NCBI GenBank assembly: GCA_001692895.1
Contig: KV748215.1
Span: 851,720-915,719, forward strand
Reading direction: 5' to 3'
DNA: 64,000 nucleotides
From: Cenococcum geophilum 1.58
Lineage: Eukaryota; Ascomycota; Dothideomycetes; Gloniales; Gloniaceae
A program made the translations under genes and the position numbers. Below are positions 2 to 25,145 of the stretch, in pieces. The notes beneath the pieces were generated by a model, which did not search any database, was not told the DNA's origin, and was given only the letters and a program-made list of their open reading frames with translations. Position 1 is the stretch's first letter, and the number at the start of each line of letters is the position of its first letter.

Positions 2-3000
2 CTTCCAGGAAGTCCCACCAACAGGAGCCATACTGGTAGTGAAGGTAGTACAGGCAGTGCAGGCTCCAATGAAGGCAGAGGCGCAGAAAAGGGTTCAAAC
101 GCTGGAGGCCAGATAAGACCTTCGACACGCAAACGCGGATTAGACGGTAGTGACAGTCCGGCCGGTGGTGGCAATGATGATGATGGCGAACCCGGTAAGC
201 GAAGGAAAATAAGGGAACCTTCAGACCATTCTCTTAGCAAAAACCATAAATTTGCATGCCCTTTTTTTAAACGGCAACCGGAAAAATACAAGAGCTATAG
301 GTCCTGCCCCGGTCCTGGATGGGATACGGTGCATCGCTTGAAGTAAGTGGTGGACCGGGCTCTAGCGGTATGACAGTGATATGCTAAGAAGCAGATAGGC
401 AGCATATTTACAGTCGGCACATGCGGCCTGTCCAGTGTGTTAGATGTTGGAATAGCTTCAAGACTACAGAGGAGCATGAGGAACATCAGAGAGCTACGCA
501 GGCGTGTCAGATAAATTCAAGAGCTATTGCGGACGGTTGTGACAGAGACCAAGAAAAGTTATTAAGGAGTAAGAAGAGATCTGCAGCAGTAAAGAGCGAG
601 TCAGACAAATGGAAACAGGTTTGGAAAATTCTCTTCCCAAAAGACACAGATGACCAAATTCCTACGCCATGTAAGCTGAGTAGCGTTTGTTTCCAGGCTT
701 GGTACTCAATCAATTCAATTTAATTGAGGCCTTGAATTGATTGAATTGAAAGCTTTGTAAGCAGAAGGCTTAGTTAATTGAATTGATTGATTTAATATTG
801 AAACGATTGCAACTAATTGCAACTATGTAGTAGTTAGTGATTATCACAAGTCTTGGTATGGTGTTGATGCAGGAGGACCTACCCAGCGACGCCCGGATCG
901 CTTTCTACCGTCATTTCTGTCACTCCTGCCGTTAATATGGGCCTATCGTGGGTCTTGGCGTGGTGTTGAGTTACTATCCTACTGTGTACCTTCTGTTCCT
1001 TTCTTCTGCGGCCGCCTTAACTGCCTATCTACTATTTTAATTACGCCTTCCCTATCCCACGATCCTACTGCCATTGAAGCTCTAATTATATTAGATTGTA
1101 GTCGTGCGCGATTGGGAGTAAGGAGCAAGCCTGTAAGGCTAAATATTCGTTTAGGGTCTGATGATATTAGTAGAATAGTCATTAAATTGAGAGCCATGCG
1201 AGCGAGTTGTGGATATTGAGTCCCGTTTACTCTAGCTCGCTAATAGGCAATTGGATCCGTATATTGAACGTCTTTAGGGTAACCTGCTCGTGCTAGCTAA
1301 TTGTTATACTTGTCGCGATCTTATATAGACATAGGCTGAGCGAAGCCGCCGGTAAAATAGTTGTTGATTTTAGATAAGAAGACGCGCCGCTATTTAAGAA
1401 CCTCACCGTTAGTAACTGATTTAATTAGAAGGAATTTATATTTAAGCTATAGATCGCGAATAGCTTGCTTAGCTGCTTCCTTTTAACTAGCCCGTCCTTT
1501 ACCCGTCCAGTATTTATTAGCGAATGTCTATTTAATTAATGGATTAAGGACCGTGGCAGCGATATAGGCAGGCGAATAATTAGTAAGTTAGTAGTATTTG
1601 GTTAGCTTTAGCTAAGCTGCATTAATATTATGGCGGAAGTGAGGCTCCGGGTGGTGTTCGTACTCTATTTTAAAGCGCTTAAATTAATTAAGTAGATACT
1701 TAAAAATAGGAAGGACCTCCTATAAGGATCTAAATTTACCTATATTAATTAGTTTATAATAGAAATTAATGACGTTAATTTATATATGCCTTCCTTTAAG
1801 CGTTCTTTTAGTCGCTTTATAGCAATCTAAAGAGGCTTTAGAATAGCTTGATATTCAGTTAATATAGCCTAATCGTCCTCTATTAGGTAGTTCTTGACAA
1901 TATTAGGCTCTTTGCGGACTCTTATAGGCGGATCCTTTGTACTGTTCTTAGTAACCTTAGCCTAGTACATTATCTATTTAATAACTTCGTTATTAATAAG
2001 GCGATTAATGGGGTTTTGAAGCTTAATAGCTTATTTAATTGCTGATTCTATGGAGTTCTAGCGCGTCTCTACTGGCTTAATTGGAAGAAGCTTAGTAGCG
2101 GTTCGCGATGCGTTGTCTTTAAGCTCTAGATCTTAAAGCTTAAGCAGCTTTTTAATGTGTTGCTTAGAGTTAAATATCTAAAAAATAATATTACGAAGCT
2201 TGCTAATAGGCCCGATCTTTCTTTAAGCTAATATCTGCCGGAGGACCTTATCCTTATTCTCTTCTTCCTTATCTAGAGCCCTTAAATCTGCGCTAAAAAG
2301 CAGCATATAAGCAACTAGATTGATAATATGGCCTATATAACGAAGGCGACAATATAGTGGATTAAATCTAAACTTAATGGAGAGTTCGTCAATGCAGGTG
2401 TTATTATTATTTGCGTTATTCGCTATAAAGTAGCCTACCTGCTGCTTACTAATTCCGAACTTAGTAAGGATTTTCTTAACACTGGCTGTAATATTAACGC
2501 CTAGATATTGCTCTTCTTAAGGAGGGAGGGCTAGAAGGAAGGAATGGTGCTGGTTTTTTTTATTCATAAAATGAACGACAATTCCTATATAGTAGTTAGT
2601 AATTAATATAATAAAGGCCTAAAAGCTAAGCTTATTAAGTAGTAATAGATAATTATAAGACGTCTAAAGATTAAATAATAGATAAATCTTGCCCAGAGCT
2701 CTATGTAGTAGAGCAGTAACTACTTCCTTATGTTGATTGAACTTAGTAATTATTAGCTTTCTTATTATCTGATAAGTAGGTAGAAGGCCTGCGGTTAATA
2801 TAGCTTAATTAGTATACTCTATAAGATTATGAAATATACTGCTTTTAAGCTTATAAAATGGAATATTATCGCGTATAACCTATTACATTAAAAGCTGAGT
2901 AAAATAATCCGGACTAAGGCTCTGGATAATAGTATTTATTTAGGCTTAATCCTCTGGCTTATTAGCTTAAAGATGTAGCTATTTAAAGACTAATTGTCCT

Positions 3001-6000
3001 AGCTTTACTTCCTTTTTAGGACCGTTGCTAATATTGTGTTCTTCTAGCATGTGCTTGAAATGATTAGTAGTGCCTGAATCTAGATATATATATTGTATAT
3101 AGGCCTTCTTCCTATAGTAGATTTTGTAGAGCTAATACCGCCTACTAGTTTTACTATGCTTAATATTATATCTATACTGCTATATAGGCCCATAACGTCT
3201 GCCTGCCGTCTATTATTTACACGCTTATGGAGAAGAGGATTAATTAATCTAATTAGTGGGTACGGGCTTAAAGGCATTAATTAAGAATGGGTATATTCGC
3301 AAGGCCATTTATAGGGGATTGCCCTGCCTTGACTAAACGTAATGCCTATAGACCTGTGCGTAAGCATATCGCTGTAATATTTATTTATAAAGCCCAAAAT
3401 ATATAACTAAAGAAAAAGGTATGGGTGGGAGGGAAAGCAAGCAAGTAAGGCTTAATTTTATGAATGTTGATGATGTTAGTATTGCTGAGATATAGGGGTG
3501 CTGCTGTAGTGCTTGCTTAGCCACATAGATATATCTATTTATTATTTACACACTTATAAAGAAGAGGATTAATTAATCTAATTGGTGGGTACGGGCTTAA
3601 AGGCATTAATTAAAAATGGGTATATTCGTAAGGCCATTTATAGGGGATTGCCCTGCCTTAACTAAATGTAATACCTATAGACCTAGAAGCGCAGCGCCTG
3701 TACCATATAAGGTAGAATAGGGGAAAGAAAAAATAAAAAATAAAAAAGGAGGGGAAAGGAGAGATTTAAGTTAATATATTAGAGTGCTAAAATAGGCACT
3801 TTTGCACGCTGTTATACCTAAATACCTTCGCCTATTATATTTAGGGCGAGTAATAATAAGAACGGTATTAGCGTTCTATATTGGAAGTTTATACTTAGCT
3901 AGAATAGGTTTTTTAGGGATAATAAACAGTAAAGCTGGAACGCTTGTAAGGACTACCAGCTTAGTTGCTATATTTAGCCGTCTATAAAACTATTGTCTTA
4001 AGCGTATTAAGCAGCACCTTTTTAAAATAAGTGTTTGTTATAGAGCTTAGAGTAAAGGCCGAGAGCAGCGACTTTATACTTTAGCTTATTTTTAACCACG
4101 TAGCTTATAAAGGCCGATCTTTTAAAGTAAAAGAGAGGGGCGTTTTTGGGTTAGGGGTTATTTTTAAATAGGTGTTTTATAGCTTAAACTGCGTATTTAG
4201 GTTGCCCTAAAGCGGTAATTATAATTAAGACTTCTTAGTAATTAATGTCCGTTTTACTACGCTTTAGATATAATATTATATAGTCCTCTACTAGCGTTAT
4301 GTTATTTCTAATACATTTTATAGTAGAGAAGGCGTGGCTATTTTTCTAAGCCTTAGTATAGGTGATCTCGCCTAAATAAAGGAATCCCGTAAAGGCCGTG
4401 GTGACGGTAGCGTTAAAGTTAAGATCCTTAACGGATTAGGCATTTAGGGTAACTAATTAGGTAAGAATATCTTTGGTAATTGGCAATCTTTTAGCCGTAG
4501 TAAAGGGATTTATAGATGTTATACCGTTTAAAATCCTCTTAATAATAGGATTATTAAAGACGGAGGTGTTATAATTAGCGTTAATATAGTAGGATTGAAT
4601 TGCGGAGACGTAGGCTCTAACTATAGTAGGCTTAATACGGCTTATTTCTGGACTAGTATTGCTGAAGATCTGTTAGGTAATCTATTCTCCTAGGTAGTAG
4701 AGAAGCGCTAGGTACTTCACCGCTCTATAAAGGTCGTAGTAGCCCTCCTAACTCTTAATTGCGGGATAGTATAAATCTCTCGTTCTATTAGAGAGGCCGT
4801 ACTATAATAGTTAGCCAAAATATTCTAAGGGGGCTTTTACCTTAATCTAGAAATTAGGTAGGGGGTCTTTAAGAGGGATTAGGTCTCCTATTTTAGCGTT
4901 AGATTAAATATAATAAAAAAGTATATAGTAACGGTAAATTAGAAGTATCCTAATACGGGTATAGTAATAATACTCTATCGCAATTAAAATAAGATAGAGT
5001 ATTAGCTAGCCTGTTTTCTATAGAGGAAACCTACTCTGTATAGAGCGTAATATTATAGGCTATAGCTAGTTAGAGGATCTTACGGAGCGGGTAATTACTT
5101 AGTCCTTTTACTACCGTATTCTAAAATTTTAAGAGTACTACTATATTATCCGTATGGATATAGACTAAGCTATACTCCTACTATATTGCCTAGAGCTAAA
5201 ATAAGGTTATAATTGCTTGGACCTCCCGCTTATTAATTAGGGTAAGGCGGTGTTCTATATTAGGGTAGTAGCTTAAAGAATTGTCTTAGGGTAGAGATAC
5301 CGAATAGGGCGGCTATATTATCCCTTAAGAATCCTTAAGGAAGAAGAAGGCCCTATAACTAAGAATCCCGGATATGTCTAAAAAGAGATAGAATTATTTT
5401 TAATCCGTATTGTTAAAGAAGAGAATACTATTTAAAAGGGTAAGAGCATCCCTCTACTATAATAAGTCTTAGTAAAGTTTAGCTATTAGCCGTTAGTAAG
5501 AATAACTACCTACCTTTATAAAAGTGGAGATAAACTCCTAAATAGAGCGGTTATATAAACGCCTAAGCCTAATTACCCAGGCGCTCTAAGCGAGTCTACT
5601 AGCTAGTTTTTAACTCTAAACTAGCGTTAGGGATCTACTACTTAACGCTTTATTAATCTCCTTAATTATAGTGGCCTGTTTTAAAGGAGAAAGACGTAGT
5701 TTAGACTTTAGAGTATCTATAATATAACCTAGGACTTTAGCTATAGTGCCTTTAATATTCTTTAATTCGTTTTATAGGATGCCTAATTTATCGCTTAATT
5801 AGTTATATATACTAAGTAATTAAGGGAGGATAGAAGCGTTAGAGAGTATAAAGATAAAGTTATTTAGATAGTGCTCTAAGGCGGCGTTTAGGATATATTG
5901 GATAAGTATCTAGTAGAATCCCTCTATAAAAAGATTAAATAAAAAGGGTGCAGTTTAAAGGCTAAATAAGAGGTAATGTTTAAAATACACTATACCCTTT

Positions 6001-9000
6001 TAGGAGAACCCTATAAGGCGTTAAGCTTTAATAAAAAGTAGGATATTCTAAAAGGCGTCCTTAATATCCCTCTTAATAATTATATAACTATAGCCTATAT
6101 ATATAACGTATTAAAGAACCTAATTAACTGTTAAATATTATAGTGTGGCGAATGCTATAGGGATTAAGTCGTTAACAGATTAGCTAGATAGTAAGAATAA
6201 GTTATAAATACGGCGCCATCCCCTATCCGCTTTAGGTATTAAACCTAGCAGTAAGAATATAACGGAAGACGTTGCTATTATAATCCTACCTATATTTAGA
6301 TCGGCGCTAATCTTCTCTAAGATTAGGACTGTATTTACGGCTATTAAGGCTTAGTTCTTTTAGGAAAGGAGCTTAATTTCTAGGTCTACCCTAATCTAGT
6401 ATTTAAACTTTAAGATACTAATAATATTATATTAGAGGTTGCCGGGGTATAGGGATAGATAACGCCCCCACGCTTAAATAATTAAGGGGGAGGGAGAGCC
6501 CTATAGAGGAAAGGAGGGTAGAAAGACTGGAAATAATAGTATAGTATTTAGCCTACCTATACTATAAGGGTAGAGCACAGTTTTAGTGGAGTGTAGGTAT
6601 AGCTTAATAAAATTCTCTTCCTCCTCTTCCTTTTCCTTATTAATACTTTCCTCTAGTAATTACTACTTATAATTCCTCGCAGCATATAGGCTACCGTACT
6701 TACTGTAGGTATATAGGAACTTATAATTCTTACCTAGGTTATACTTCCCTCTATTAAAGCTATAATAGGTCCTTAAGATATTAGTGCTTACTTATATATA
6801 TTTTAAGATAGATGCGGATTTATAAGTACTGGGATTATAATAGATATTTAGGAAGTTACTAGAGATCTTCTAGTTAGCTAGCTCTAACTAGTTCTTTTAA
6901 ATAACTATAAAGTAGTGCTTTAAGGCTATAGTTATTAAGGGAGTAATTTGGTAGGTAGTAGATAGCTAGATAACTTAATTATAAAAGGTAAGTATTTAGG
7001 GAATAAGATCTACTAAAAGATTCTTATATATAACGATTAAAATTATTATATAGTTAAGGAAGCCCTTTACCCACACTTTAATAGACGGGTAGTCCTTTAT
7101 CGTCCCTTTTTTCGGTCTTATAGAAAGGACGCTGTTAATAATAAGGATATTATTCTGAGGCTTAGACTAGAGCTGGTATATCTAGAGGTAAGAGAGGTTA
7201 TTAGGCAAGAAAGTACCCTAAAATACCTTAAGTATCTCTTTATTTAGGATGCTAGGGAGAAAAGTATTTAGGATATTGGCTATAGATGGGAGTAACTTAC
7301 CTAGTTTATTAATTAGGGTTAAGGATAATACTGCTATAGCTAATCTTGCTATTATTATAGCGAGGCTTAATATATAGAGTTTAGTCGCCTAATTTTTCTA
7401 TTTTTTTTAGACGCATAGCATTTTAGTACAGTCCTTCTATTCCTAAAGGAGTCTTATTTTCTAGTTAGTTGCCTAGTCCTTAACCTTCTTTACCTAAGCT
7501 CTTCTAATTCTTAGGTCTTCCTCGTGTAGTTACTAGAGCCGTTTTTTAGCTTTTTTAGCGGCTAAAGTCTCACGTTAAGCCGCGGAGAGAGGCGCCATTA
7601 TAGAGGATAGAGACTGTGACGCCGGCGTATCGCCTAAAGGTGTAAGGGAAGGTAAGGGAGACTAGTAGGTAACCTTTAAGGAGTTTAGCTCGTCGAGTGT
7701 GTCATCGTTAGTTAAGTTTTTAAGGTTTTTACGGATAATTCGCGAAGGTTTAGACGAGTGTATAGGTTGTTAAGTTATTAATAGCAATAATTAATTATTA
7801 GAAATTAAGTAAATAAGGCATTAGCTCTTAAATAAGACTAATATGGAAAGCAAGCAAGCAAGGCTCAATTTTGTGAATGTTGATGATGTTGGTGTTGCTG
7901 AGATGCAGGGGTGCTGCTGCAGTGCTCGCTTAGCCATATAGACATGTCCATTAAATGAGGAATATGGTAGCCAAGAATGCGCTTCCAATCAACTTCTGTA
8001 TAGTCTTCTGGCTGAGGATTGGTGGTAGACGCGTTGGTATTGCCATTTAAGCTATGAGCGTGCTGGAGGTTAGTAGGGACGGTAGGATTAGAACGAGCTG
8101 TAGAGAGTGTTGAGGTATTCGTTTAGCCATCATCTGACGTATTAGAAGCCATGGTGGTAATAAAATTGATATTGTTGGTGGGCAAGTCTAGTAGTAAAAC
8201 TCTTCTTACCTGCTAAGACTCTGGCGATAATGTGACACTGTAAACAACGGGTGATGCTCAGGTAAACCTTTTTTGGTAAGGAGGACTAAGAAAAATAAAA
8301 TCTAGAGCATTATTGTATGTTATATTCAGCATATTTCTATATAATATTAAAAGTTTTAATATTTATTAATCAATTCAATTCAACTAGGACTTTTATATTG
8401 ATTGAATTGCTAAGCCAGCGAGCTCTCAGTTGATTGAATTGATTGAGTCTTGGCATTCAATTCAATTCAATATTGAAACCTGGGTGATTGAGTACCAAGC
8501 CTGTTTGTTTCTGAAGCTGATAACCAGCTAATTAAAAATAGTTTATAATATACCTTCTCGTAACGACCAAACCACCATGAAATCTCCTGGGTCAGACGAC
8601 TTTGCCGGGTTTGAGGAGTATAGACGCCGAGAACTTCCTCGTATTATTAGACAGCGTGTTGAAGAGGCTGTGCAACGAGAGCACGAACCATTGGAAGAAA
8701 GAGTTAAAAACGAAATTATGCAAATAATTCGTGATTGTACCACCGAACTTCTTCACGATTATAGAAGGGAACGACAATCCGTGGCTTCTACGCCAGCACA
8801 TGGAGTGGCTGGGGAGCATTTCTTTGTGCCCCCATCTCCTATTCCAGCCAACCAATCTGGTCCTGGCTTGTTGGAAGCTAGCCAAAATACCAACAATGCT
8901 TATTTGGCAAAATCGGCTCAACTCTCTGACTCTGGTTACCGTTCGCTTGGCTCAAGCTTCACTGCAGCAAATGCAGCTTCTTCGTACTCTGCTACAAGCC

Positions 9001-9596
9001 AGTATCAAGAACTCAGTAGGCGGTCGGATCAATCCTTTCCTTCGGTTCGCCTTTATCGTACAGGCTCAGAGATACCAGACGAGCGACACCCTGTGGCGGA
9101 AACAGCAGCTTCAGCCGAAGCAACACAAATCATGCGTCGCACCCTTCCTAGTAATATTGAAGTTTATGAGACAAGTTATGGGAGCAACCCTGGATCTCGT
9201 TTTAATGCCCGCACCAACGAGTTTCAGGCTTTAGGTTCTTATCCAATAGATAACTCTACCATTGAAGAGACTGGATCGGATTTTACTGGGTATACTGACT
9301 TCAATCCGTTAATTCATCTACCGGACTCTGGGAATCTCTTCAATCCTGGCTCCATTCCAGACTGGACCTTCCAGAGAGCACAGATACGTTCGTTTGATTT
9401 CGGAGAAAACAGGTTCCTAGCCACCGAAGGGCGGAATTTAGAGGCTGCAAGCGTTTCAATGGATCTTCAAGCAGACTCAGTAACAGCGGACAGTTTGGTT
9501 TTCTTTGATGACATGCCATCGATGCAGGGTCTCGATTTTGAGCAGAGGCTTAACATGGATGCCACAGACAGCGCTGACCTTGGGCCTAGCAGATAG
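2..9596 (+). CDS. C2H2-finger-like regulatory protein, 5'-partial, with a transposon in intron 2
   Basis: Exons read as <2-342, 399-670 and 8542-9596, with stop TAG at 9594-9596. Exon 1 encodes a Gly/Ser-rich and basic region, then a fungal finger module (ACPFFKRQPEKYKSY and CPGPGWDTVHRLK). It runs across a 56-nt intron (gtaagt donor, CTAAG branch-like site) into HIYSRHMRPVQCVRCW. Exon 2 ends after KILFPKDTDDQIPTP. Exon 3 resumes in the right phase from acceptor AATAG at 8541 and gives YNIPSRNDQTT, then EEYRRRELPRIIRQRVEEAV, a helical block usual downstream of this finger in ascomycete proteins. The rest is a low-complexity Ser/Asn-rich acidic tail, which could be an activation region. Intron 2 now measures 7871 nt because of a hAT insertion; without it and one target duplication it is 53 nt. 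All exons stay open, so the gene may still be functional if the giant intron is removed. The DNA target and pathway are unknown. Confidence 0.8.
3212..3684. repeat. Split direct repeat cluster (B, spacer, A, B) of the YR retrotransposon
   Basis: A 144-nt block starting ATTATTTACAC occurs at 3212-3355 and again at 3541-3684. Between them lies a 105-nt block (3432-3536, starting GGAAAGCAAGCAAG) that recurs at 7845-7949 on the far side of the coding region. The copies differ mainly by transitions of the RIP kind. Confidence 0.8.
3900..7598 (-). pseudogene. Gag/reverse transcriptase/tyrosine recombinase polyprotein relic
   Basis: A likely start is MAPLSAA at about 7598, followed by a basic Lys/Arg/Gln-rich region whose Gln codons are mostly TAG/TAA. 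The reverse transcriptase reads APFLFNLFIEGFY, then EHYLNNFIFIL at about 5850-5880. The family has YLDD here, so both aspartates have become asparagine. Further on comes VLGYIIDTLKSKLRLSPLKQ and KALSSRSLTLV, the DIRS-type RT connection region. The recombinase domain (about 4700-3920) shows RIKPTIVRAYVSAIQSYYIN, then RLPITKDILT, AFTGFLYLGEITY, KRSKTDINY and ALGQPKYAV. It ends in IDGXIXQLSW, then SLQAFQLY, where the Tyr nucleophile is still encoded near 3930. Many stops make it non-functional. Confidence 0.75.
7845..7949. repeat. Outer A repeat of the YR retrotransposon
   Basis: It shares the run GAATGTTGATGATGTT and the following GGGGTGCTGCTG motif with 3432-3536. This copy is less RIP-mutated (TGAGATGCAGGGG against TGAGATATAGGGG). 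It marks the upstream end of the minus-strand element, next to where hAT sequence resumes. Confidence 0.78.
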
Positions 9597-11097
9597 GTCA
9601 CCGTATGACCTATCCAATTCTTCTATTTGTCACACGAGCATTTTCACTATTATCTTATGACCTTTCGCGTACTGGCAGCGCACTAATGGTATCTCATAAT
9701 GAGAGCACACCCCCGTTCCTTCTATGGTGGTAGAAGGGCTGTTCATATTTGGGTTATTCATTTATTTATTTCACTTCCTAACGACTGATCCATGATATCA
9801 AGGGGTTAGGTTGTTTTCTTGCTAATTTACTCTAACGAATGAGGCGTGCGAAGCACTTGTGTCTGATATTTAAGGATCTCTAGCGCAGATTTGTAAGAAA
9901 GATACTGGAATATAGTATATATGGTCGCATTTCTTAGCTCTCAGCAGCCATGGCTCAGGTACAAATGCAGCCAAAAGCAGCATCCAAGCCATCCACAAGG
10001 AAAGGCAAATGTCCTTTTACTTACTCTCGCAATGTTTTAGGTGAGCTGTTCCTATCCTGTTGTGATAAAGGCAGCCAGAGCATGTTCCGAAGGCGCTGGA
10101 GTACATATATATGTGGTAAAGAAAGGGGTTTCGGTGTATCATTCCTGGAAAGGGTTCATACAGCCCCAGCACCATCTTCCAGTAGTAATTGCGAGATAAC
10201 GAGTATTGGATATGAGGCCGCCATGTTCAGTCAGACAAGACAATCAAGGATCTGACACTTCCATTTCACTGAAATACCGGCAGACGGCCGGAATAAATGA
10301 ACCTCTGCCACTATAATGATCAGAACTTTACTGTGAATGATTACCGATGTAATCACTGGATTTCATTGCCCGATTCGCTGCTTACTAGAGGTACTTTCGC
10401 TTAGGATCTCCTGTATGACCCAAGAGGTTCGTGGCAAGATCGTCCGTGTAAATATCATTAAAAAAAAACTGGTGAGATTGTGTGCCAGAGTCAGAGCAGC
10501 CATGTCACTGGCTATATTGAGACTTGTTTAAAGAGCACAACTGACACCATTGCCGTGCTCTAGCCCAAGTTAAAAAGCCAATTCAATTCCCACTTGAGCA
10601 AGAACTGCCACATTGTTTTCCATCTGAACCCCTCATATCGTAAAATGGATATCGGCTATGAATAGTAACCATAAGATTTGCTGAAGCCATTAGTAAAAGT
10701 TTGAAAATTGCGACCTTGCTATCTCTATATGACCATGACAATGATTCCACACTTCCCGGGATATATTTCGTCTTATATAAACTGAAAAATTCGAGAAAAT
10801 CGCGAGAATTAAGCGTCAACACACTAGGCGAAAACTTAAAAACGAGTAATGATGAATACTTCAGTTTTCCTCGGCGCCTAGTGAGAGGCTAACAAAAACA
10901 GTGAGTTGATACAGATTACTATGGCCCTTCTCCCGCATTAACTTGATACCACCCACCTGATTTCATCTATTCTCCTAATAGCAGTAAGTCCATTACAAAG
11001 CCTCGGCCCATGAGCCAAAACAGGCCCTGCTTTGAGTCAACAACCTGCTCATGTTGGAAGGGAAATAAAACCCTCCCCCCGGCGACCTCGGTGCCCC
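9597..11097. other. Intergenic, no supported gene
   Basis: About 1.5 kb between the C2H2-like gene and the converging DUF255 gene. It holds only short overlapping open frames on both strands without a recognisable domain, signal peptide or consistent splice pattern. It presumably contains both 3' untranslated regions. I see no RNA gene and no repeat. Confidence 0.5.
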
Positions 11098-13814
11098 TCA
11101 CGTTACATCCCTCAACGCTCTCTCCACATCACCCATATCAAGCTCCTCTCTACACGCTCCCGCCTCACAAACCATAACCCCCTGCTTCTCCTTATCCATA
11201 CTCGCCACCAACCCATTTCTCTTCCTCAACCACTCACTCTTACTCCCACCCCCGATCCTCGCCACCACGCCCATGCCTCCAACCCTACCTCTCGCCTTCC
11301 TCAGCCACTCCTCCACCCGCTCGCCTGCCCCGCATACCACGACGCTCTTGGTGCCCAGCCGTCCGGCCACCACACTGTCCATCGTGCTAGCGAACAGGAA
11401 CGGGTGCTGCATGATTTCAGCCTCGAATGCGTCGCACGTCTGGCGTGCCTGCGTGCGGTACGTCTCGTCTTCCAGCAGCGCAGCTAGGCGGTCGAGGTTA
11501 CGGGCTGAGATGCCGTTGGTGGAGGGCTCGGCATTATCCATGCCGTCTTTCAGGCGGAGGATCAGGTCTGCTTGGCCGGCGGCAGTGGAGAAGAAGCCAA
11601 GGTGGGCAGGGTCCCAGAAGAGGGAGATTTGTGATTCTGCATTTGTGGTTAGTGGGAGGTTGCCGCACGAATTTTGGCAGGTTTGCTGTTTCTAGGAGGG
11701 AAAGGGGAAGGGGATAGTGAGAGGTGGCAGCTTACTTTGTAACCGATCTGCCCATTCTAGGTATGCGTCATTGAAAGTTGCTTCGTAGAGATCGATAAGA
11801 CCCGAAATCATGAAGGCGTAATCATCCGCGAAGGCCGGCGCATCACCGGGCCCTTCGCGGTAAACCCGTTTCATAGTCCCAGAGCTCTCATCCCAGAGTT
11901 CTTTCTTGATAAATTGAGTAGCCTTTTCAGCTGCTCCAAGATAAACCTTAGCATTTGCCGCATCAAAGCCCTCGAGAACTGTACTGGTTCGTGCCAAAGC
12001 ACCTATTGCAAGCCCGTTCCAAGAGACTACAATTTTGTCGTCGAGGCTTGGCCGTGGCCGTTCCTTATTTCTATGTTCTAGAAGCTTTATCCTGCCGTCT
12101 TTTAGGATCTTGATCACGTTCTCCTTTGATAGACCGAACTCCTTGGACAGGGACTCGGGTGTGCTCTTAATTGCAAGCACGTTCTGGTTGATGAGCTCGT
12201 CGTGAGCGTCATGCTCAGGACTCACGTTGCCATTTTCTTGAACGTTGTAGTACTTCGCCAGTACTCCAGCGTCCCTCTCGCCGAGAATGGACTGGAATTC
12301 CTTCAGGGTCCAGACATAAAAGGCACCTTCGCGCTTTTCCTTGTCGGTGGGTCGATAAAATGAATCCGCGTCTTCAGCGGAGAAGAAACCTCCAGTGGAG
12401 GAGTGCATTGGCGGAGTAGTAAGATAAGTGGCGATATCGTAGACGGCATCTAGCATTTCCGTATCCTTGCTTATTAAATAAGCATCGAGGTAGACTGAAA
12501 GGAGTTGAGCTTGGTCGTAAAGCCTATGGATATAGTTAGTGACCGCTTCCCTTGGAGATGAACTTGTGCTCTTACATCTTTTCGAAATGCGGGAGGCTCC
12601 AGTCTCTTGTGACAGAGTATCTCGCAAACCCATTCCCAATCTGATCATGGATTCCACCCCTTGTCATAGCCTTGAGCGTGCTTAAAACTATTTCTTTCGC
12701 ATTATTACACTCACTCGCGCCCACTACATCCTCTACCGCGCTTGGATATTGACACAATTTGAGCAAAAATGCCAAATTTACGGGTGTTGGGAACTTGGGT
12801 GCACCTCCGAAACCCGCATGCACAGGATCCAATTTCGCAGCGAAATGCTCATACGCCTCCTCGAGTAGTTCCAGCTCTAAGCCATCAGTTTCTTCCTCCC
12901 CATGCCGACTTATTGTCCCTTCTTGAGCAAACTCCCTCAACTGCGCTGTGATCTCCTTCGCGGAATCCAAACACCGCTGCTGCTGATTCTTCCACACGTC
13001 TCTAATCTTCTCTAGAATTCCAACAAAGCCAATATGATCCCTAATCGCAGTCGTCGAGCCTGGGCCGGGCCAGTATGTCCCTCCAAATATCGGCTCCAAG
13101 TCTGGCGTGATGAAGACGTTCAGCGGCCAGCCACCGGAGCTAGTCGTAGCTTGGACATAGTTCATGTATATACGGTCGACGTCCGGGCGCTCCTCGCGGT
13201 CGATCTTGATAGGGATGAAGGAGGCGTTGAGGATCTTGGCGACTTCGCGGTTCTCGAACGACTCGCGTTCCATGACATGACACCCTGCATAAAACCGTAA
13301 ATCTCAGCCCCCATCGCTGTGCCTCTAGCACTTCTGTGCGGAAACATGAACCTACAGTGACAAGCCGCATATCCAATACTAACGAATAGTAGCCTATTCG
13401 ATTTCTTCGCAAGTGCTATAGCTTCCGGACCCCACATCTGCCATGCAACTGGGTTGTTCATGTGGCCGCGGACCTGCCAGGACAACCGCATTAGCTTATC
13501 ATCCTGCATTGCAGCCGTATGGATGCAGCCTGGGCACTTACGTACGGGCTTCTACTCTCACTAAGCCTGTTAACCAGCTTTAGCTCTCCGGACGTACTTG
13601 AGCTGGCTAAGAGGTCTTGGACGTCCATCTTCGCGGTCGAGGTATATAGCCTTAGTAATGGAGACTTCAAGTACAACCGGGGACGCAAGGACGACTGATT
13701 AGTATATCGCGGGGAGTGGTGGGAACGAGTGTATCTTCGGATTGCTCGGAGAAGAAGCGGTGTTGTAGTAGGAAGGCGGGGCATAAACTGGACTGGTGCT
13801 CTCTTGAGGCTCAC
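11098..13814 (-). CDS. DUF255/thioredoxin-like, spermatogenesis-associated protein 20 (YyaL) family
   Basis: Five exons on the minus strand: 13814-13542, 13473-13356, 13284-12576, 12523-11736 and 11636-11098, giving about 808 residues with every junction in phase. The N-terminal 60 residues are rich in Arg/Ser/Tyr with almost no acidic residue, so mitochondrial targeting is likely. Next comes LVNRLSESRSPYVRGHMNNP and a thioredoxin-fold domain. Its CxxC motif (CHWC, in GYAACHWCHVMERESFEN) is created across the exon 2-3 junction. Further blocks are KIDREERPDVDRIYMNYVQA, GGWPLNVFITPDLEP and GGTYWP. The large C-terminal (alpha/alpha)6-like domain contains GGFFSAEDADS, VVSWNGLAIGALA and FADDYAFMISGLIDLYEAT. 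The biochemical role of the family is not settled; a redox or sugar-epimerase-like activity has been proposed from its folds. The gene looks intact. Confidence 0.92.
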
Positions 13815-14044
13815 GGGATCAGCAGGTGAAGAGGCAGGGTATGGAGTGTTGAAGCCTGCAGGACCCCTCCAAAACTACGTAAATGTGCTGATAAGGCTGA
13901 AAATATGAAGCTTCTCATTCGTTGTTTAGCGGGGCTGTGAACGACCCGCAACTTCCCTTTTGCCGAAAAGCTAAATTATAGTACACCTGATTCATCCATG
14001 GTCTGTTTTATCTACGCAAAGAGTATTTAGAAGCTCTAAATGGC

Positions 14045-14741
14045 TCAGGACTGCCCATTCGAATCGCTATCTTGCAGCCAATATCCAATCTCCGTTAATG
14101 AGTTCCCCGCAACACATCCTCTCCGTTTCCCTCCCCGATACCCATCCCGCTCATTAAACAGCGCAGCCAGCACACCCACCGCCTTTGCTGGTACTACATC
14201 CTCCTTCCTAATTCCGCACCTCTCCAAAACCTCCCCAAACAGCCCCGCATCTTTCGCTAGCCCAACCTCATTCGACGTAACCAGCACATCCACATAGGGC
14301 GCCAGCCCTAATTGCTCCACCGTCTACTTCTGCGCGTCTCTCGGGCCTTCCGTAACAATCACCGTATTCTTCCCCCGCGCTTTCAGCTGCTTGAACAGCT
14401 CTAACGCGCCTGGATTTGGCGTTAACGCTGCGGCGAGAGCGGTTAGCTCGTCGAGATAAATCTGAAGAAGGCAAATTGTAGGCTTTCAGTAGTGCTGCGA
14501 AGCACTCTTTCCGGTACTCGGTTAATGTCCTGTTATCTGTGAAGGCGCTCCTGGTCTTTTCCTTTGGGATTGCTGGGTAGACATTTGCGAGTACCGTAAC
14601 TGCGGTATTGTACCTCTCATAGATGTCACTAAAGACTGCTAGAGAGGCTGTGCTAGATGCGCTGCGGAAACAGTGGAGCATGTCGTCGAGATCGAAGCCG
14701 AACCATGTCTTTGTCTTGAGTATATGGAGTGTGGTAGCCAT
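14045..14741 (-). pseudogene. HAD-like hydrolase, broken by a frameshift and an in-frame stop
   Basis: The first part (from Met at 14741) begins MATTLHILKTKTWFGFDLDD, carrying the HAD motif I DxD, and runs through RTLTEYRKECFAALLKAYNL. At about 14450-14460 the coding signal jumps by one base into another frame: DELTALAAALTPNPGALELF, then KARGKNTVIVTEGPRDAQK (motif II Thr). A TAG at 14324-14326 then interrupts it, most simply from a Trp codon. The frame continues with TVEQLGLAPYVDVLVTSNEV and a C-terminal part ending at 14045. Two independent lesions argue for a pseudogene rather than an intron; I found no donor/acceptor pair that fixes both. Intact members would be about 230 residues. Confidence 0.72.
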
Positions 14742-14945
14742 TTGGGCGTTTAAGATACGCAGGCTGAAGGTAAGCTTCGTAAGTATATTTGACCAATGCT
14801 AACAGCCAATGCTTGTAGGGGAAGAAGCTATAAGATCACGTGGCAATAAATAAAATGTATTTAGAAAGATAGTACGCAGTAGGTAAGTCCAAATATTATA
14901 ACGTAACCTCTTAATATTTTTGTAAGATTATAATAATTTACTTTA

Positions 14946-15439
14946 TTCCTTGCAACGTCGAAATGGGCCCTCAGGTTATCGATAAGAACTAACCAATTAG
15001 ATTGGCTGAATTTTATGCCCGTGCTTAGAAATATGGTGGTCCCAATTGTTAATATAGAGAGGTTCGAATTTGGGTAACGGTAGGGCTTAGGAGGAGCTGT
15101 TTTCGCAGTCTCATTTAGGGGGATGTTGTATTGGGTCTTCTAAATAAGGTCTATATCAATTCTAGCATGACTAGAAGGCATAATGGTGGTGAGATTGTTG
15201 GTTGAGTTCTATCCCTTAACATGATGGTTTACGTCCACAGTTTATCGATAAGAGCTGGCCAATAGGAGGCTCTCGTTGACCTGATATCTTGGCACTGATG
15301 TACATCTAATACTGGTGTTCTTAGACTTGGCGCCAAGCTGTGGACACCATCGTGTCAAGGGATATAGATACACGCGTTGATTTGAAAACGGTGTTCCCGT
15401 ACGGACCACTTACTCTGAGGACCCTGATGTTGCAAGGGA
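14946..15439. mobile_element. TA-flanked miniature element with TCCCTTGCA-type ends
   Basis: The left end (TA at 14944-14945, then TTCCTTGCAACGTC, then GGGCCCTCAG) pairs with the right end, read on the minus strand (TCCCTTGCAACATC, then GGGTCCTCAG; TA at 15440-15441). The element is about 494 bp, has no open frame and contains a second, smaller element (15212-15362). Its terminal sequence resembles that of the piggyBac-like element at 28368-51711, so it is probably a non-autonomous derivative. Confidence 0.6.
15212..15362. mobile_element. 151-bp nested miniature element of the same terminal family
   Basis: TA (15210-15211) precedes TCCCTTAACATGATGG, then TCCACAG. The right end read on the minus strand is TCCCTTGACACGATGG, then TGTCCACAG, followed outside by TA (15363-15364). 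It sits inside the 494-bp element. The internal TTATCGATAAG sequence recurs at about 14978 and, as CTTATCGATAA, at about 51108. Confidence 0.62.
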
Positions 15440-15494
15440 TAAGATTGTAATAATTTTCTTTGTAATTATAAATTATAGTTTGTCCAAGTTTTCA

Positions 15495-17532
15495 TCACAA
15501 ATAAAACCTCTCCTTCTTTTCCCCTCTGAGCTTTCTAACCTCCTGTTCATTATCACACGACGCAATAGCAATATGCCCGACCCGATGCCCGGCCGCCACG
15601 TCCCCAAACCTCACTCTCACATTCTGCATCAACCTCGACCTCTCAATTGAGTCTAGAGTCGAGCCACCAGGCGGAAGGTGGATATGAGGATTATCTCTCG
15701 TCAGCGACGAAATATTCATCGCAAGATCCGGGGCACGGCGTGTAAGCTCCAGCACCAGCCCGAACACTCCAGCTATGAACATGGAGCCCGTCGCTACGAA
15801 CAGCATAGCGAGCCAAAAACGGTTGCAAATTAGTATTTCCCTCGACGTCGACACCGTCGCCACCATCGTCAACGTATTCGTACCGTTGTGAAGATTCGCG
15901 TTACCAGCGAGACCGCCCGGTACAGCTGAGAGCCCGATCCCAGCAATCCAGAACGTATTCATGAGCTGCGCGAAACTGATAGCGAAGGAGATGCTGCCGA
16001 CGGTGTAGAGGAGCATGCCATCGGGGGTGTTGTTGAAGGGACTGCCTGGATTAACGAAGTAGCGCTGGACCGGGGTGGGGGTGTACATGTTGCCTGCAAC
16101 GGCTCCGAAGAAGTCCCGTACATATTCCGCAAGTATGAAATCGTGGAGAAGTGTGTAAGCAGGAACTGGATGTGGCTTTGTGGACGAACGGATCTTGGTG
16201 ACAGCGCACACTTTTCCGGTGCAGGCAGATTGGACTTCGACATAGGTCGTGTTCATGGTACATTCAGCGTATGTCATTTTCTGGTCGTCGTCGTAGCTGG
16301 TGTAGTAGAGCTTACGGGAGGTAATATTGGTGTCGCTTGCGTTGTGGTAGACCCTTGGAGTAGAAAATGTCCAGCACTGTGACAAGCCCGAGACCCACCC
16401 GGGAATTGATCGCGGCGATGAACCATTTATTCCCGGTACCACTGCGGCGCCACTTGCTGGCCGTTGGAGCACAGGACAATCCAGTACCCAGTACGATGTC
16501 TCCATGTTAAAGGTTGAATTAATTTCCGCTATCAAATTCGACGTAGGAATTCCGATAAGCGACGAAAACACAGTGGTGTTGCCGCCGCCAACTTCATACC
16601 AACCTTCGCTGTCCTGGGTTAGGTTCGAAAGGTGCTCTATCATAGGAATCTTCACATTTCCCCAAGTATCCATGGCCGAAACTTTGGTGGACAAAGGGCT
16701 CAATAAAGCTGCTCCGTAGAGCGCCTGGCTCGTAAATATTGCGCTTTCCGCATCCAGTTCGCCAATGGCTCCCATGTCTAGATACTGCATTGTTTGTGGT
16801 TGCGTCGTGGTTGCGGTACTGAAATCGAGTACACGTAATGAGGCCTGGCCGCCGATTGGTGAAAGTGTCCAGAGTATTATCAGCCCAGCACCGACAAACC
16901 CAATATTACGGAACTTGAGTTGCGTAACCACTGTAGCAAAAATAGATGTGCTCCCGAGAAGTTGATCAAGGACTTTCATCCGTTCGCCAAGTTCAAGTCT
17001 CCAGAGAGCGATTGCGTGCATTGCTTGTCCCACAATAGCCGCAAATAGAATGGGAAAAACCGTAGGGCCCTAGCCATTATTAGGGAAACCACCTAAGAAT
17101 ACTGACGCTAGACCATCGATACGAGTGGAAGACAGCGTGTAGCGCGGAGAAAGACAGGAGCTTGGTGTGGAACAGCCAAAATGCACCTACATAACGAGCA
17201 GCATTCTGAAGAAGCGATAGATGCGGTACAGATGACGTTGCTACTCCATCATAGCTTATAACAAAAGCGCCATAGACGAAAAACACACAGGAAATAATAA
17301 TTGTAAAAGCATCTCCGGTGCAGCTGAGGGCGGCAAAAATACCACCTCGATGCAGATTCTGGGGCCTCTGGGGCCATTTCTTAATGAAGCGAGACTTTTC
17401 ACTGGTAGCTTCTCTCGAGCCGCCTTCAAGTATAGGTAGTGGAGAGACTTCTGATGTTGATGGGAGAGGGGGGAGGCTTTTCTGCGATAACCGTCGTGTG
17501 TTCTCTGGGGGGGGATTGACGATGATATTCAT
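15495..17532 (-). CDS. Multi-pass membrane protein with a large N-glycosylated lumenal/extracellular loop
   Basis: Two exons (17532-17191 and 17069-15495) joined across a 121-nt intron give NAARY followed by GPTVFPILFAAIVGQAMHAI, about 638 residues. An upstream in-frame Met at 17559 would add nine hydrophobic residues; I prefer the Met before NIIVNPPPE because a Pro-rich hydrophilic tail (residues 1-65) is usual here. Hydrophobic segments are FTIIISCVFFVYGAFVI, the GPTVFPILFAAIVG block, NIGFVGAGLIILW, then after a loop of about 270 residues LLYTVGSISFAISFAQLMN and FWLAMLFVATGSMFIAGVFG. The loop carries many N-x-S/T sites (NLT, NTT, NST, NGS, NAS, NIT) and several cysteines. The C-terminal tail is cytosolic and charged. 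The protein resembles uncharacterised ascomycete membrane proteins; its function is unknown. Confidence 0.82.
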
Positions 17533-18574
17533 GATTAAGAGAGAAAATGCGCAAAACAAGGGCTAAAACGACTCTCCGAGTAGCTACAAGCATGATCGAC
17601 CGCAAGAGTGCTTTTAACATTTTGTTTCGTGTTATTGTGGCGTAGCAACCTGAAATTGTTTTTCAAATCATGTTTATTTAAAGGCAGTTACTGAAACGTT
17701 ACTCCAGCAGCAGTACAACCAGAGAGCCGAATGACAAATGGGATACATCCCGACAAAGCAATTTCTAGAAAATTTCTTTGGGAAGTAATAGGTGCTACAG
17801 TGACTAACTCTGTTCATCTATAGATCGTTCCTAACTTGCAGAAAATTTCACGAGATGAATTTAAAAAAATGAGAAAACAAGTGAACCACTTGAGAAATAT
17901 CAAGTGCGTATATAAGCACTGGATATTGTTCAGTTGATGGGGTTTGGTCTCGTAGCGCGCAGGTAGGTGCGGCGAAGTTGCGAACGCATTCGACTCTGAC
18001 AAAAAGACGTAAAACAGCCAATGTTTGGCCCTAAATTTCGAAACCAGTGAACCGTACAATGGCTAAGCAGCGACAGACTCTCACCTTGCCATTTAAACAT
18101 TCGCTCCATCGTCTCTTAGGAATGAGAAACCAGCTCCTTCAAACATTTAATCATGAGTTACCACACCAGCTGTTAATGAAAATGGAAATTTCAAGTTTAG
18201 ACTACGAGTCTCAGAGGGTAGCAAGGCTCTTCTGGCCAAGGATATTGATGTATGATGGCTTCATTGCATGTGCACAAAGGGGAAGAAGTGAATATCAAGT
18301 CCGGCCTTCTAAAGGCTTTTGTAGTAAGTATCGACACAGAAGTGAAGCCCGAAATCTGCTGACCGTGTTCAGATATGCTAGAGGAAAGCAGCCGGGATAT
18401 CAAAAAGAAACAGAAATTTTTCCGATAAAGGAATCCCCATCATGCATAAATGCCTCGTGGACCGCAGGTCGACATTTCCGACGCAAAGATGCTCAACACT
18501 AATGTAAAATGCTGGGAGAAAGAAACGGGTGACAGGTCAATTTCTTGACACAACTCATGGAGACATGAGGCCAT
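17533..18574. other. Intergenic, no supported gene
   Basis: About 1 kb between the starts of the membrane-protein gene and the end of the CAP gene. A 151-residue open frame on the plus strand (18047-18502) has no recognisable domain and no supporting splice or compositional signal. I see no repeat or RNA gene. Confidence 0.45.
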
Positions 18575-19560
18575 CTAGGAGGTCCAAGTGGCGACAGGCG
18601 CGCCCTGACCCTTAGAGAGATTTGAGTCCCATTTGGGAGAGACGTTACCTAGGAAGGTTAATTAACATTCAATCCAATTCAATTCAATGATAAAGTGAAA
18701 GGCTTACCGGCGGGGAAGTAGTTACACACAGTAAACCACATGCCGAGTGCTGCTCCACGGCAATCATAGGTTGCGCAGCCTACCGTCTTGCTGTCCTTCC
18801 AGATCATCTGGGTGGCATGGCCGTACAGTTCAAGATCACCTGTAGGTGTATCCATGCCATAATACGGGTTATAATTCTCGATCTCGTTGTTGTACCAGCC
18901 ATCCGTAAGTCCACCAGACACATTGGCGTTGGGAGCACTGCCGGCGAGATTTTGACCGACGCTAGAGCTTTGTCAGAATGCCTGGGAGCACACAAATGAA
19001 GGACATACTTACGAGTCATGCCTGAACTCACAGAACTTGGCGAGAGCATAAGCCGAGTCTGCCAAAGTTTGATTCCAGGTCAAAGCATCAGCGGAGTGGT
19101 TGGCACGGTGAATGTTGTGATGAAAAAGCACCATATTCTCGTAGTCTGGGCCAGAGGTGAGGTCGCCCTCAGCGGTACCAGTAACGTGCGAATTGCCGCC
19201 GGATGAGGTTTGAGAAGTTGTGGGAGCTGCGCTGCTGACAGGTGCGGCAGACGATGATGCAGGAGTATATGTGGGAGCGGCTGAAGACGCAGGAACGACT
19301 GGGGCAGCTGAAGAAGGCACAGCAGCTGGAGTGGATGTTACTGGCTTAGGAGCGTAGGAGTGTTTGTGACCAGCCCACGGCTTAGTGGTGACCTCAGCTG
19401 CAGCAGCGGACAACGATGGGTAGCCATACTCGGTCACACATTTGGTAACTGTCACATCAACCCAGTCGACAACAGTGTAGACATAGCCATCGCGCTTGCG
19501 AATTGGGCCTGCAAGAGTGCCAACTGCAAGAGCGGCAGTGAGAAAGATTGAAGACAGCAT
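18575..19560 (-). CDS. Secreted CAP/SCP/PR-1 family protein
   Basis: Three exons on the minus strand (19560-19013, 18967-18708, 18648-18575) give about 293 residues, all junctions in phase. A signal peptide (MLSSIFLTAALAVGTLAG) is followed by a likely Kex2 site (KR). Then come a Val-rich segment and a Ser/Ala/Pro/Thr-rich linker (about residues 65-125) that is probably O-glycosylated. The CAP domain follows: NIHRANHSADALTWNQTLA, SVGQNLAGS, YGHATQMIWKDSKTVGCATY and WFTVCNYFPAGN. The last exon adds only about 24 residues (NVSPKWDSNLSKGQGAPVAT and the end). Family members bind sterols or act at the cell surface in host or stress contexts; the role here is inferred. Introns are 45 and 59 nt, and the second contains a run of CAATTCAATT-like sequence. 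Confidence 0.9.
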
Positions 19561-20370
19561 CTTGGATTGTTGAAGGAGCTTAGTGTGAATGTTTGCTTGT
19601 TGACTTGGGATCTCAGACCGCCGGTGAAGTGGGTTTGGAAAACGACTAAAGGATGTTAGAGCTAATACCTTTCATAGAACATAAAGCTAAACCAGGAGGC
19701 CGTCTTTGATGTTTATATCAGGCAACGGAATAGCTGCTGGCCTAAAGCCAAGTGGTTATTACTCACGTGGAAGCTTCACTGATCCTCACTGAGGGTACGA
19801 GCTGTTCGGTACGACTGAAGCGTACGTGGTGTAACAAAAGAGTGTAAAAGAAGGAGCAGAAGAGAATGTGGTCTCGTGAAGACAAAGCTTGCACAAGGAA
19901 AGACCGTTGATCAAAGGAATGTGGTGATGGAGGGTAATGGAGAGAAGAGATCGTAGAATGACGGCCGGTTTTATGGAGCGGATGACGCTAATTAAGCGAA
20001 TTGGGCCGTCGGTGCTGTGAGATTTGGACATGAAACCTAATCTCAGAGGGTGACGCACAGGCCTGAAGAGGACATTGCAACGGGGATCCGGTAAGCATGC
20101 GTTGCAGTAGATGGGACACCGGCGTTGGCAGTGGGCACTTTATACACAGTCGATTACTGGCATGGCATCTCTCACGGTGAAGCTTTGACGAGCTCGAGAC
20201 GGCATCATCGTGGGGAAGAGCAGCAAGGTGGGCATCCCTTGGGCGAGAGCACTCAACTCGCAGCAGTCCTTGCCCCGCCTCTGAAGGATCTCGTAAAAAC
20301 TTCCGTTCGGAAGTTTGATACTTTGATTAAGGTGTGTTATTTTGCAGGGGCTGCTTCAGGCTGATTTTCG

Positions 20371-20398
20371 GGCTGGATGGGCTGGATGGGCTGGATGC
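20371..20398. repeat. 10-bp tandem repeat (GGCTGGATGG), about 2.8 copies
   Basis: Three consecutive GGCTGGATG units are visible between GATTTTCG and CGATTCGC. It is a short minisatellite without coding meaning that I can see. Confidence 0.85.
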
Positions 20399-21416
20399 GA
20401 TTCGCTGCAAACGCAGAAAATGGTAGGGGTTTCGGCGATCTCCCCAGGATGTTTTCGTTGGCTGCGTGGCGCTCAGGGGAAACAAACTAGCGGAATCCTT
20501 CTCCGCTCGGCCCCTTGCTTTGGCCTGTCCCTTCATCTCGGGAACCTGTCGTGTGTCAGGGGCCGTGCTGCAGGTCCACAGCCACTCGACTCGCCAAGAG
20601 GTGTGCCTCTGCAACTGGCCACGACCTCTTCTCGCGCGGTTCAAGTTGTGACAAGGCGTGCAGTCTCACTGCAGGATACTGGCTAAATTGTATATAGTCA
20701 AACTGTCAGACCCGTGAGAGCCTCAGTGTTACCACGACTGCTCTATTTGTTTCCTTGCAAGGGTACAGCACTTAGCCAAATCAACCGTGTCCCCTTAGTC
20801 TGTCTCACGTGTGCATAGCAGTAGTGTCAGCCTCTTGAGACTCGAGAAGAGTTTTTTTTTTAGGTCATCCACATTACCTCGGTGACGAAGTCGTGCAAAT
20901 TGTGGTTCAGGATGTGGCAGGACTTCCTTGGCACTCGGTCTCGCCAAACTGAATTTGAGAACGTGCGATTGCGACAAAAAAAAGCCATGCTTTATCTTGT
21001 CCGACTGAATAATGATCCAATGGCGCTCACATCGTCGAATGAAGTACCACTTTCTCCTCAGAAGCGGTCGACGTCAAAAATCTCATATCTTGGAGGCCAA
21101 TCCTCTGACGCGTGTCCATCCCATTCTGGCTGAGATGGCTCATGCTTTTGTCTTAGAAGCCGACGTCCTGCATGCCTGGCTACCTGTGTATGAATGGGAA
21201 AAGGGTGATTGAAGCCGTGTCTCTCCTAGTGAGCTCGTCTTGTCTGGTGTTTGTTTCCTCGCCGTCAGCTTGGAGGGTGGATTCAGGATGGTGTACGCAG
21301 GCCCAACATCCGCCTCAATCATGGACAAGTCACTAGAATGCAGGTACCACTACTGTATAACCCTAGTCCGCGCTATTCGCTGCTGTTGAGCGCTGGGATG
21401 CAGGGGATAAGTTTAC

Positions 21417-21479
21417 GTCAATAGCCTAGAAGTTTGTGTCAATAGCCTAGAAGTTTGTGTTAATAGCCTAGAAGTTTGG
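21417..21479. repeat. 21-bp tandem repeat, three copies
   Basis: The unit GTCAATAGCCTAGAAGTTTG plus T is repeated three times. The third copy has GTTAATAG and ends in G instead of T. It lies in an apparently non-coding region. Confidence 0.88.
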
Positions 21480-25133: not shown

Positions 25134-25145
25134 AGGCGATCATTA

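What the first reader, a model, noticed from the sequence alone, without database searches (positions are those of the whole stretch)
3212..7949. Tyrosine-recombinase retrotransposon with split direct repeats (A-ORF-B-A-B) in an ascomycete
The minus strand carries RT then tyrosine recombinase. Matching direct repeats are arranged exactly as in Ngaro/PAT elements: A, coding region, B, A, B, with equal-length copies (105 and 144 nt). DIRS-order elements are, to my knowledge, poorly documented in ascomycetes compared with basidiomycetes and animals. The recombinase block includes GFLYLGE, KRSKTD and the terminal AFQLY.
Basis: partly seen in the sequence, partly recalled or inferred. Interest (0 to 1): 0.85.

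Follow-up and report, generated by a model that had tools for sequence, protein, structure and literature searches.

The report
Mutated Ngaro retrotransposon in an ascomycete
This is a copy of a Ngaro-type jumping element that spread recently through a large filamentous-fungus genome and was then crippled copy by copy by what looks like the fungus's mutation defence (RIP); the kind of element is known, but it has been thought of as rare in ascomycetes.

Summary
All 27 full-length copies I aligned have this layout, and 40 of 40 loci scored with the B1-A2 block, 12 of them among the 27, have a B beyond it. Within copies the repeat pairs show 738 transitions but 2 transversions; between copies transversions are 0.03% per site, transitions 8.7%: a recent burst followed by RIP. 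Seven unoccupied target copies show insertion without duplication or loss, and the ends equal the internal B1-A2 junction. Homologues support RT-RNase H and a Cre-like recombinase, although PF00589 never rang on this genome's own copies. No room for a methyltransferase and no inverted termini: Ngaro, not PAT or DIRS. All 118 recombinase loci scored carry stops. The host looks like a filamentous ascomycete. Ngaro is already reported in ascomycetes (PMC3783388, PMC4502367), with relatives in Penicillium, Talaromyces, Aspergillus and Fusarium.

The parts
3209..7950 (-). whole Ngaro-type element, 4742 bp
   Evidence: ends set by 27 copies and 7 empty sites; length
7845..7950 (-). A1, left (5') direct repeat, 106 nt; begins TGGACATGTCT
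6360..7799 (-). gag-like region (limits approximate) with a degraded zinc-knuckle-like cysteine cluster, many TAA/TAG stops
   Evidence: frame, cysteine columns; last 72 aa match P0002 at 74%, weaker matches to Penicillium, Fusarium and Talaromyces gag-RT proteins; no Pfam hit
4990..6359 (-). reverse transcriptase and RNase H, minus frame 1, interrupted by stops (3' limit approximate)
3856..4858 (-). tyrosine recombinase, minus frame 2, interrupted by stops (limits approximate)
3538..3684 (-). B1, internal copy of the right repeat, 147 nt
3432..3537 (-). A2, internal copy of the left repeat, 106 nt, abutting B1
3356..3431 (-). 76-nt spacer between A2 and B2
   Evidence: same length in the 8 rows printed
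3209..3355 (-). B2, right (3') direct repeat, 147 nt; ends AATAATAGA
7951..8260 (+). right host flank: part of a dispersed repeat that the element split (it continues at 3208 and below)
   Evidence: 40 matching loci, the window included; 7 of the 20 fetched (L039-L045) are uninterrupted, 84-95% identical

Best explanation
A degenerate full-length copy of a Ngaro-type retrotransposon family. Inferred life cycle: the RNA is reverse transcribed by the element's RT-RNase H; the internal B1-A2 block serves as the template that joins the two ends into a circle; the tyrosine recombinase recombines the circle at its B|A junction (...AATAATAGA|TGGACATG...) with a loosely defined chromosomal site (A|Y), leaving A1 at one end and B2 at the other, without target duplication. 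The family spread recently in this ascomycete and RIP then mutated each copy separately. Shown: the anatomy, the domains (through homologues), one clean insertion against seven empty sites, the match between terminal and internal junctions, a RIP-like pattern, low transversion divergence. Inferred: the RNA and circular steps, the recombinase acting at the junction, and RIP as the agent.
For: Split repeats in the window and in 27 of 27 copies, with 738 transitions but only 2 transversions between the repeat pairs in 6722 compared sites, as expected if A1/A2 and B1/B2 are made identical at each insertion. In the B1-A2 search 41 of 41 blocks at 40 loci have a B 60-100 nt beyond (shortened at C82 and C10). 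Empty target copies L039-L045 read TTTAACGG (6 of 7) or TTTAATGG (L044) across the insertion point, with nothing lost or duplicated beyond one ambiguous A. The internal junction reads AATAATAGAT-GGACATG or a version of it changed by transitions in the 27 rows, equal to end plus start. The base before the insertion is A in 26 of 27 (local background 0.31, p about 1e-12), the base after is C or T in 24 of 27 (p about 3e-5); both positions were chosen after looking. RT-RH: P0002 69% over 453 aa; PDB best Ty3 RT/RNase H, 3e-13. YR: P0012 62-66% in the three copies compared; a 24-row profile hits Cre (6e-5); the AlphaFold model of P0012 (pLDDT 89, pTM 0.68) matches Cre/lox structures first, best E 6e-10, TM 0.66, rmsd 6.6. 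RIP: C/T columns are most often before A (334 of 823) while C kept in over 90% of copies before A is rare (9 columns); TA/AT 1.62-1.72 in 8 copies against 0.86 in window 9001-26000.
Against: PF00589 does not ring on any of the four copies tried nor in the genome; among homologues it is above cut-off in 1 of 9 (P0084), below in 6, absent in 2, and below in P0119. No Repbase Ngaro, PAT, DIRS or VIPER sequence was on hand, so the clade is not placed against reference elements. One of 27 insertion sites (L004) has C, not A, before the insertion; two of 27 end AAA instead of AGA. The 27 copies are the ones scored of 200 candidates, so the low divergence may not hold for all loci. Empty sites were found for the window insertion only. 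No RNA or circle was seen.
Confidence: 0.95

Rival explanations
1. A PAT-like element of the DIRS group, which shares split direct repeats but carries a methyltransferase.
For: Same repeat arrangement (PMC4157794 passages).
Against: Only about 132 nt between RNase H and YR and 172 nt between YR and B1 by my marking of the ends, too little for a methyltransferase domain; no Pfam methyltransferase hit in the three pieces scanned, which leave out 4859-4999. The same paper describes a Pat1 lineage that lost its methyltransferase, so absence alone is not proof.
Confidence: 0.04
2. A composite of an LTR-type or other RT relic and an unrelated Crypton-like recombinase brought together by nesting or duplication.
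For: RT and YR lie in different frames.
Against: 27 copies share the whole unit with the same ends; a Fusarium solani protein (P0119) matches the gag, RT and YR pieces in one chain; PMC3783388 says YR can be frameshifted in all Ngaro groups.
Confidence: 0.01
3. A segmental duplication of one dead element, not transposition.
For: All scored copies carry stops.
Against: The printed flanks of the 27 copies differ, insertion points are the same to the base, and empty sites are known for the window copy.
Confidence: 0.01

Closest known systems
Ngaro superfamily (order DIRS), fungal members (PMC3783388)
   Same: gag, RT, RNase H, YR, A-pol-B-A-B repeats, no methyltransferase
   Different: Described there from Pucciniomycotina and Agaricomycotina, with one truncated ascomycete copy; here about 115 recombinase loci of the window's type in one genome. 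A 76-nt spacer separates A2 and B2; whether other Ngaro have one was not checked.
Ngaro family of Zymoseptoria tritici (PMC4502367)
   Same: complete Ngaro family in an ascomycete
   Different: One family; the table row seen gives 23 (by its percentages evidently kb) and 0.06% of the genome. Its sequence was not compared.
Ngaro-like proteins of Penicillium, Talaromyces, Aspergillus fischeri, Fusarium solani (P0086, P0090, P0092, P0119, P0186)
   Same: same RT-RNase H family; P0119 also carries YR and gag matches
   Different: 29-33% identical to the window RT; they sit in an eight-row clade (SH-aLRT 100) inside a 20-row group (95) that also holds the window
Cafeteria burkhardae Ngaro (PMC8547959, passages)
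   Same: A1-[ORFs]-B1A2B2, YR
   Different: a protist, four types, some preferring virophage DNA
PAT and DIRS1-like elements (PMC4157794, passages)
   Same: RT plus YR; PAT has split direct repeats
   Different: methyltransferase; DIRS1 has inverted repeats

Membership tests
Ngaro | split direct repeats A-pol-B-A-B, internal repeats downstream of YR | tested here: met
   27 of 27 copies; 40 of 40 loci, 12 of them shared
Ngaro | RT followed by RNase H | tested here: met
   window piece vs P0002 69% over 453 aa; PDB profile hit to RT/RNase H over positions 59-512
Ngaro | tyrosine recombinase with R-K-HxxR-W-Y set | tested here: met
   met in homologues (R157, K198, H272, R275, W298, Y306 of P0012 invariant in 24 rows; Cre fold). 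In the 27 degenerate copies the first R is lost in 27 and the second in 26. That these are the catalytic positions is recalled from Cre.
Ngaro | no methyltransferase | tested here: met
   no room, no Pfam hit in the three pieces scanned
Ngaro | insertion without target-site duplication (recalled as typical) | tested here: met
   empty sites L039-L045 of the window insertion; one base A is ambiguous; other insertions not tested
Ngaro | groups with reference Ngaro RTs in a tree | tested here: inconclusive
   no reference sequences held; groups with an A. fischeri protein (P0092), the species (as Neosartorya fischeri) in which PMC3783388 found a Ngaro remnant; that P0092 is that element is inference
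Ngaro | circular cDNA intermediate | not testable with these tools
   none; the B|A junction match is indirect
PAT | methyltransferase domain | tested here: not met
DIRS1-like | inverted terminal repeats | tested here: not met
   no inverted repeat joins the two ends; the 15 pairs found in 2500-9000 are 20-29 nt at 71-83%
VIPER | kinetoplastid host and own RT/RH clade | tested here: not met
   host is fungal; no VIPER sequence was compared
Crypton | YR without RT | tested here: not met
   RT present

The most novel reading that the evidence does not exclude
One filamentous ascomycete genome was colonised by several Ngaro lineages (at least three RT types; about 115 recombinase loci of the window's type alone), one of which burst so recently that 27 aligned copies differ by 0.03% transversions, and every RT and YR locus scored now carries stops in a RIP-like pattern. 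If so, Ngaro is not a basidiomycete speciality with stray ascomycete relics but a successful and recurrently extinguished invader of Pezizomycotina, and this family records the recombinase's joining rule (circle A|T with target A|Y) at base resolution.
Probability: 0.7. Interest if true: 0.5.

Novelty: new member of a known kind. Interest (0 to 1): 0.4.

Why it matters
Ngaro elements were described as nearly absent from Ascomycota; this genome holds a high-copy family and other Ngaro-like families, all full of RIP-like stops. Because RIP makes only transitions, transversions still date the burst, and because the target is itself a repeat with unoccupied copies, the insertion reaction can be read to the base. 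Annotation by standard models may miss such elements: PF00589 found none in this genome and RVT_1 was weak on the window copy.

Tried and rejected
PF00589 against the genome: 0 matches. PF00078: 150 matches listed of 8909 first-look candidates, not sorted by class and not used. Pfam on the window pieces: only RVT_1 at E 0.012; weak unrelated hits (MWFE) on two recombinase copies. PDB with the single window RT: none. IMG/VR scan with P0002: no relative. Pfam on three flank reading frames: no hit, so calling the split repeat hAT-like is my own reading only. The host's name could not be looked up; the size (177 Mb) reminds me of Cenococcum geophilum, which is recall and untested. Searches for Cenococcum with DIRS and with RIP listed nothing that I recognised as describing such an element; I opened only one of those papers for Cenococcum-type TE content (PMC5445492, passages) and one on Pseudocercospora (PMC13041039, no occurrence of Ngaro or DIRS). 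Flank composition of the 27 copies was looked at but not tested against a background. The first frame chosen for the RT was wrong and was replaced.
Full report
The window copy. Window 3212-7949 was reported as A, coding region, B, A, B. Repeat finding gives two long direct-repeat families, 145 nt at 94% and 108 nt at 88%, in that order on the minus strand. Over window 3201-8160 the minus frames have 161, 126 and 148 stops, nearly all TAA and TAG with 1 to 3 TGA. Reading past the stops, minus frame 1 runs through a gag-like region, RT (KRDIKDAF, TAPFLFNLF) and RNase H, and minus frame 2 through the recombinase (GFLYLGE, KRSKTD, KGAA, AFQLY).

Copies. The genome (177 Mb, 162 contigs) gave 27 near full-length matches (4734-4738 bases of the 4738 asked); only 27 of 200 first-look candidates were scored. 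I aligned all 27. Every row has A1, B1, A2 and B2. Over the 27, A1 against A2 shows 360 transitions and 1 transversion in 2834 sites, B1 against B2 378 and 1 in 3888. Between copies (351 pairs) the mean is 0.031% transversions and 8.7% transitions per site. C/T columns are followed by A in 334 of 823 cases, while columns with C in over 90% of copies are followed by A in only 9; TA/AT is 1.62-1.72 in the 8 copies measured against 0.86 in window 9001-26000. This is the mark of RIP, acting on each copy separately after a recent spread; the organism's RIP machinery was not looked for. The three coding blocks have the same length in all 27 copies. A query with the B1-A2 block scored 40 of 238 candidates: 41 blocks at 40 loci, all 41 with a B 60-100 nt beyond, 12 of the loci among the 27, 55 distinct loci in all. 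One locus (C82) has an extra A-spacer-B unit. With the recombinase of an unnamed relative (P0012), 118 of 312 candidates were scored: 115 at 55-79% identity and 3 at 43%; all 118 contain stops.

Termini and insertion. In the 27 copies the element starts T, then GGACATG or a version changed by transitions, and ends AATAAT followed by AGA (25 of 27) or AAA (2 of 27). The internal B1-A2 junction reads AATAATAGAT-GGACATG or a version changed by transitions: end plus start, as the circle model for split repeats requires. The window copy sits in a dispersed repeat. The right flank matches 40 loci; of the 20 fetched, L038 is the window itself, L039-L045 hold both flanks side by side at 84-95% identity, and L052 at 75-78%. 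Six of these seven read ...TTTAA|CGG..., L044 ...TTTAA|TGG.... The element therefore spans 3209-7950, 4742 bp, and entered without duplication or loss; one A is present on both sides of the crossover, so a one-base overlap cannot be told from none. The base before the insertion is A in 26 of 27 copies and the next host base C or T in 24 of 27; empty sites of the other 26 were not sought.

Proteins. A two-copy RT-RNase H profile found 8 proteins; the best (P0002, source jgi, on a 4.8-kb contig) is 69% identical over the whole piece, and one is from Penicillium taxi. A wider profile of those 8 found 571 among 7995 scored candidates, the best 120 listed; named ones include Penicillium odoratum, P. 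subrubescens, P. waksmanii, Talaromyces stipitatus, Aspergillus fischeri and Fusarium solani. A quick tree of 41 rows, a hand-picked part of these hits plus two copies from G000, puts the window with L006 and P0002-P0004 (100), within a 12-row group of otherwise unnamed proteins (99), and that beside an eight-row group that holds the seven named ascomycete proteins used (95 for the 20 rows). The letter make-up of the RIP-affected rows is skewed, the outgroup is long, and no named basidiomycete or animal Ngaro is in it. The RT profile matches Ty3 RT/RNase H in the PDB (3e-13). The recombinase profile (three copies) found 75 proteins, including one of Aulographum hederae. Pfam PF00589 is above its cut-off in 1 of 9 scanned, below in 6, absent in 2. 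A profile of 24 of the 75 matches Cre (6e-5). The AlphaFold model of P0012 (pLDDT 89.3, pTM 0.68) matches Cre-lox structures first, E 6e-10, TM 0.66, rmsd 6.6. In the degenerate copies themselves the first arginine is changed in 27 of 27 and the arginine of HxxR in 26 of 27, while the tyrosine is kept in 27, so none of the 27 is likely to encode a working recombinase. The gag end matches P0002 and more weakly the gag-RT proteins of other ascomycetes.

Host. The largest uL3 exon of G000 scores 449, 449 and 447 bits against PDB chains 8oo0, 7olc and 7r81, then drops to 397. From recall these are Chaetomium thermophilum and Neurospora crassa, so a filamentous ascomycete; organism names are not in the output.

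What is known. PMC3783388 (abstract, introduction, first part of the results, the Ngaro section and find passages) defines Ngaro by A-pol-B-A-B repeats without methyltransferase, reports it in Pucciniomycotina and Agaricomycotina, and one truncated copy in Neosartorya fischeri. PMC4502367 (passages) reports one complete Ngaro family in Zymoseptoria tritici, 0.06% of the genome. Repeat tables count Ngaro-labelled pieces in three of four Sporothrix genomes (126, 104, 98), Hortaea (12 and 12) and Ophiocordyceps sinensis (147, 187 kb), without structural proof in the passages I saw; so numerous Ngaro-labelled pieces in ascomycetes are in print, and this tells against novelty. PMC4157794 (passages) separates PAT by its methyltransferase from Ngaro with the same kind of repeats. 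PMC6681497 (passages) states that the repeats must be nearly identical at insertion, which fits. Searches for Ngaro with Ascomycota, with ascomycete, with tyrosine recombinase and fungi, with repeat-induced point mutation, for split direct repeats with fung, and for DIRS with Dothideomycetes showed me no structural description of a high-copy ascomycete Ngaro family; I saw listings and the passages named here, not the whole of those papers, and most subscription papers are not in that library.

Other Ngaro lineages. A relative (P0005) finds 77 scored loci of 331 candidates in the same genome: 34 at 60-74% identity, 1 at 53% and 42 at 43-48%; all 77 contain stops. Several of the lower group lie next to recombinase hits (for example C7, C63, C6, C77), two (C94, C1) next to the 43% recombinase type. 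So the genome holds at least three Ngaro-like RT types; the repeats of the others were not examined.

Verdict. It is a new, abundant, RIP-silenced member of the Ngaro superfamily.

Noticed in passing
window 2223-3208 and 7951-8260: The element splits a dispersed repeat; its right flank matches 40 loci. I read it as a hAT-like transposase start, but Pfam gave no hit.
   Followed up: partly
window 61044-61350 (L057): A second, 76% identical piece of the same split repeat lies near the other end of the window.
   Followed up: no
L061 237-1011 (G000 C82:245036-245810): One copy has an extra A-spacer-B unit (B-A-S-B-A-S-B), as recombination between B-A junctions would give.
   Followed up: partly
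L002, right end of the element: The host side continues with the reverse complement of the element's own first 11 bases, AGACATGTCCA; the A1 start holds the palindrome GACATGTC. Perhaps an inverted joining event.
   Followed up: partly
G000, 77 loci: At least two further Ngaro-like RT types, many loci, all scored ones with stops.
   Followed up: partly
P0133, P0152: Ngaro-like RTs deposited under bacterial metagenome bins (Chloroflexi, Terrimicrobiaceae): probably contamination of the bins.
   Followed up: no
window 29001-51000: A long stretch of 31-41% GC suggests more RIP-affected repeats.
   Followed up: no
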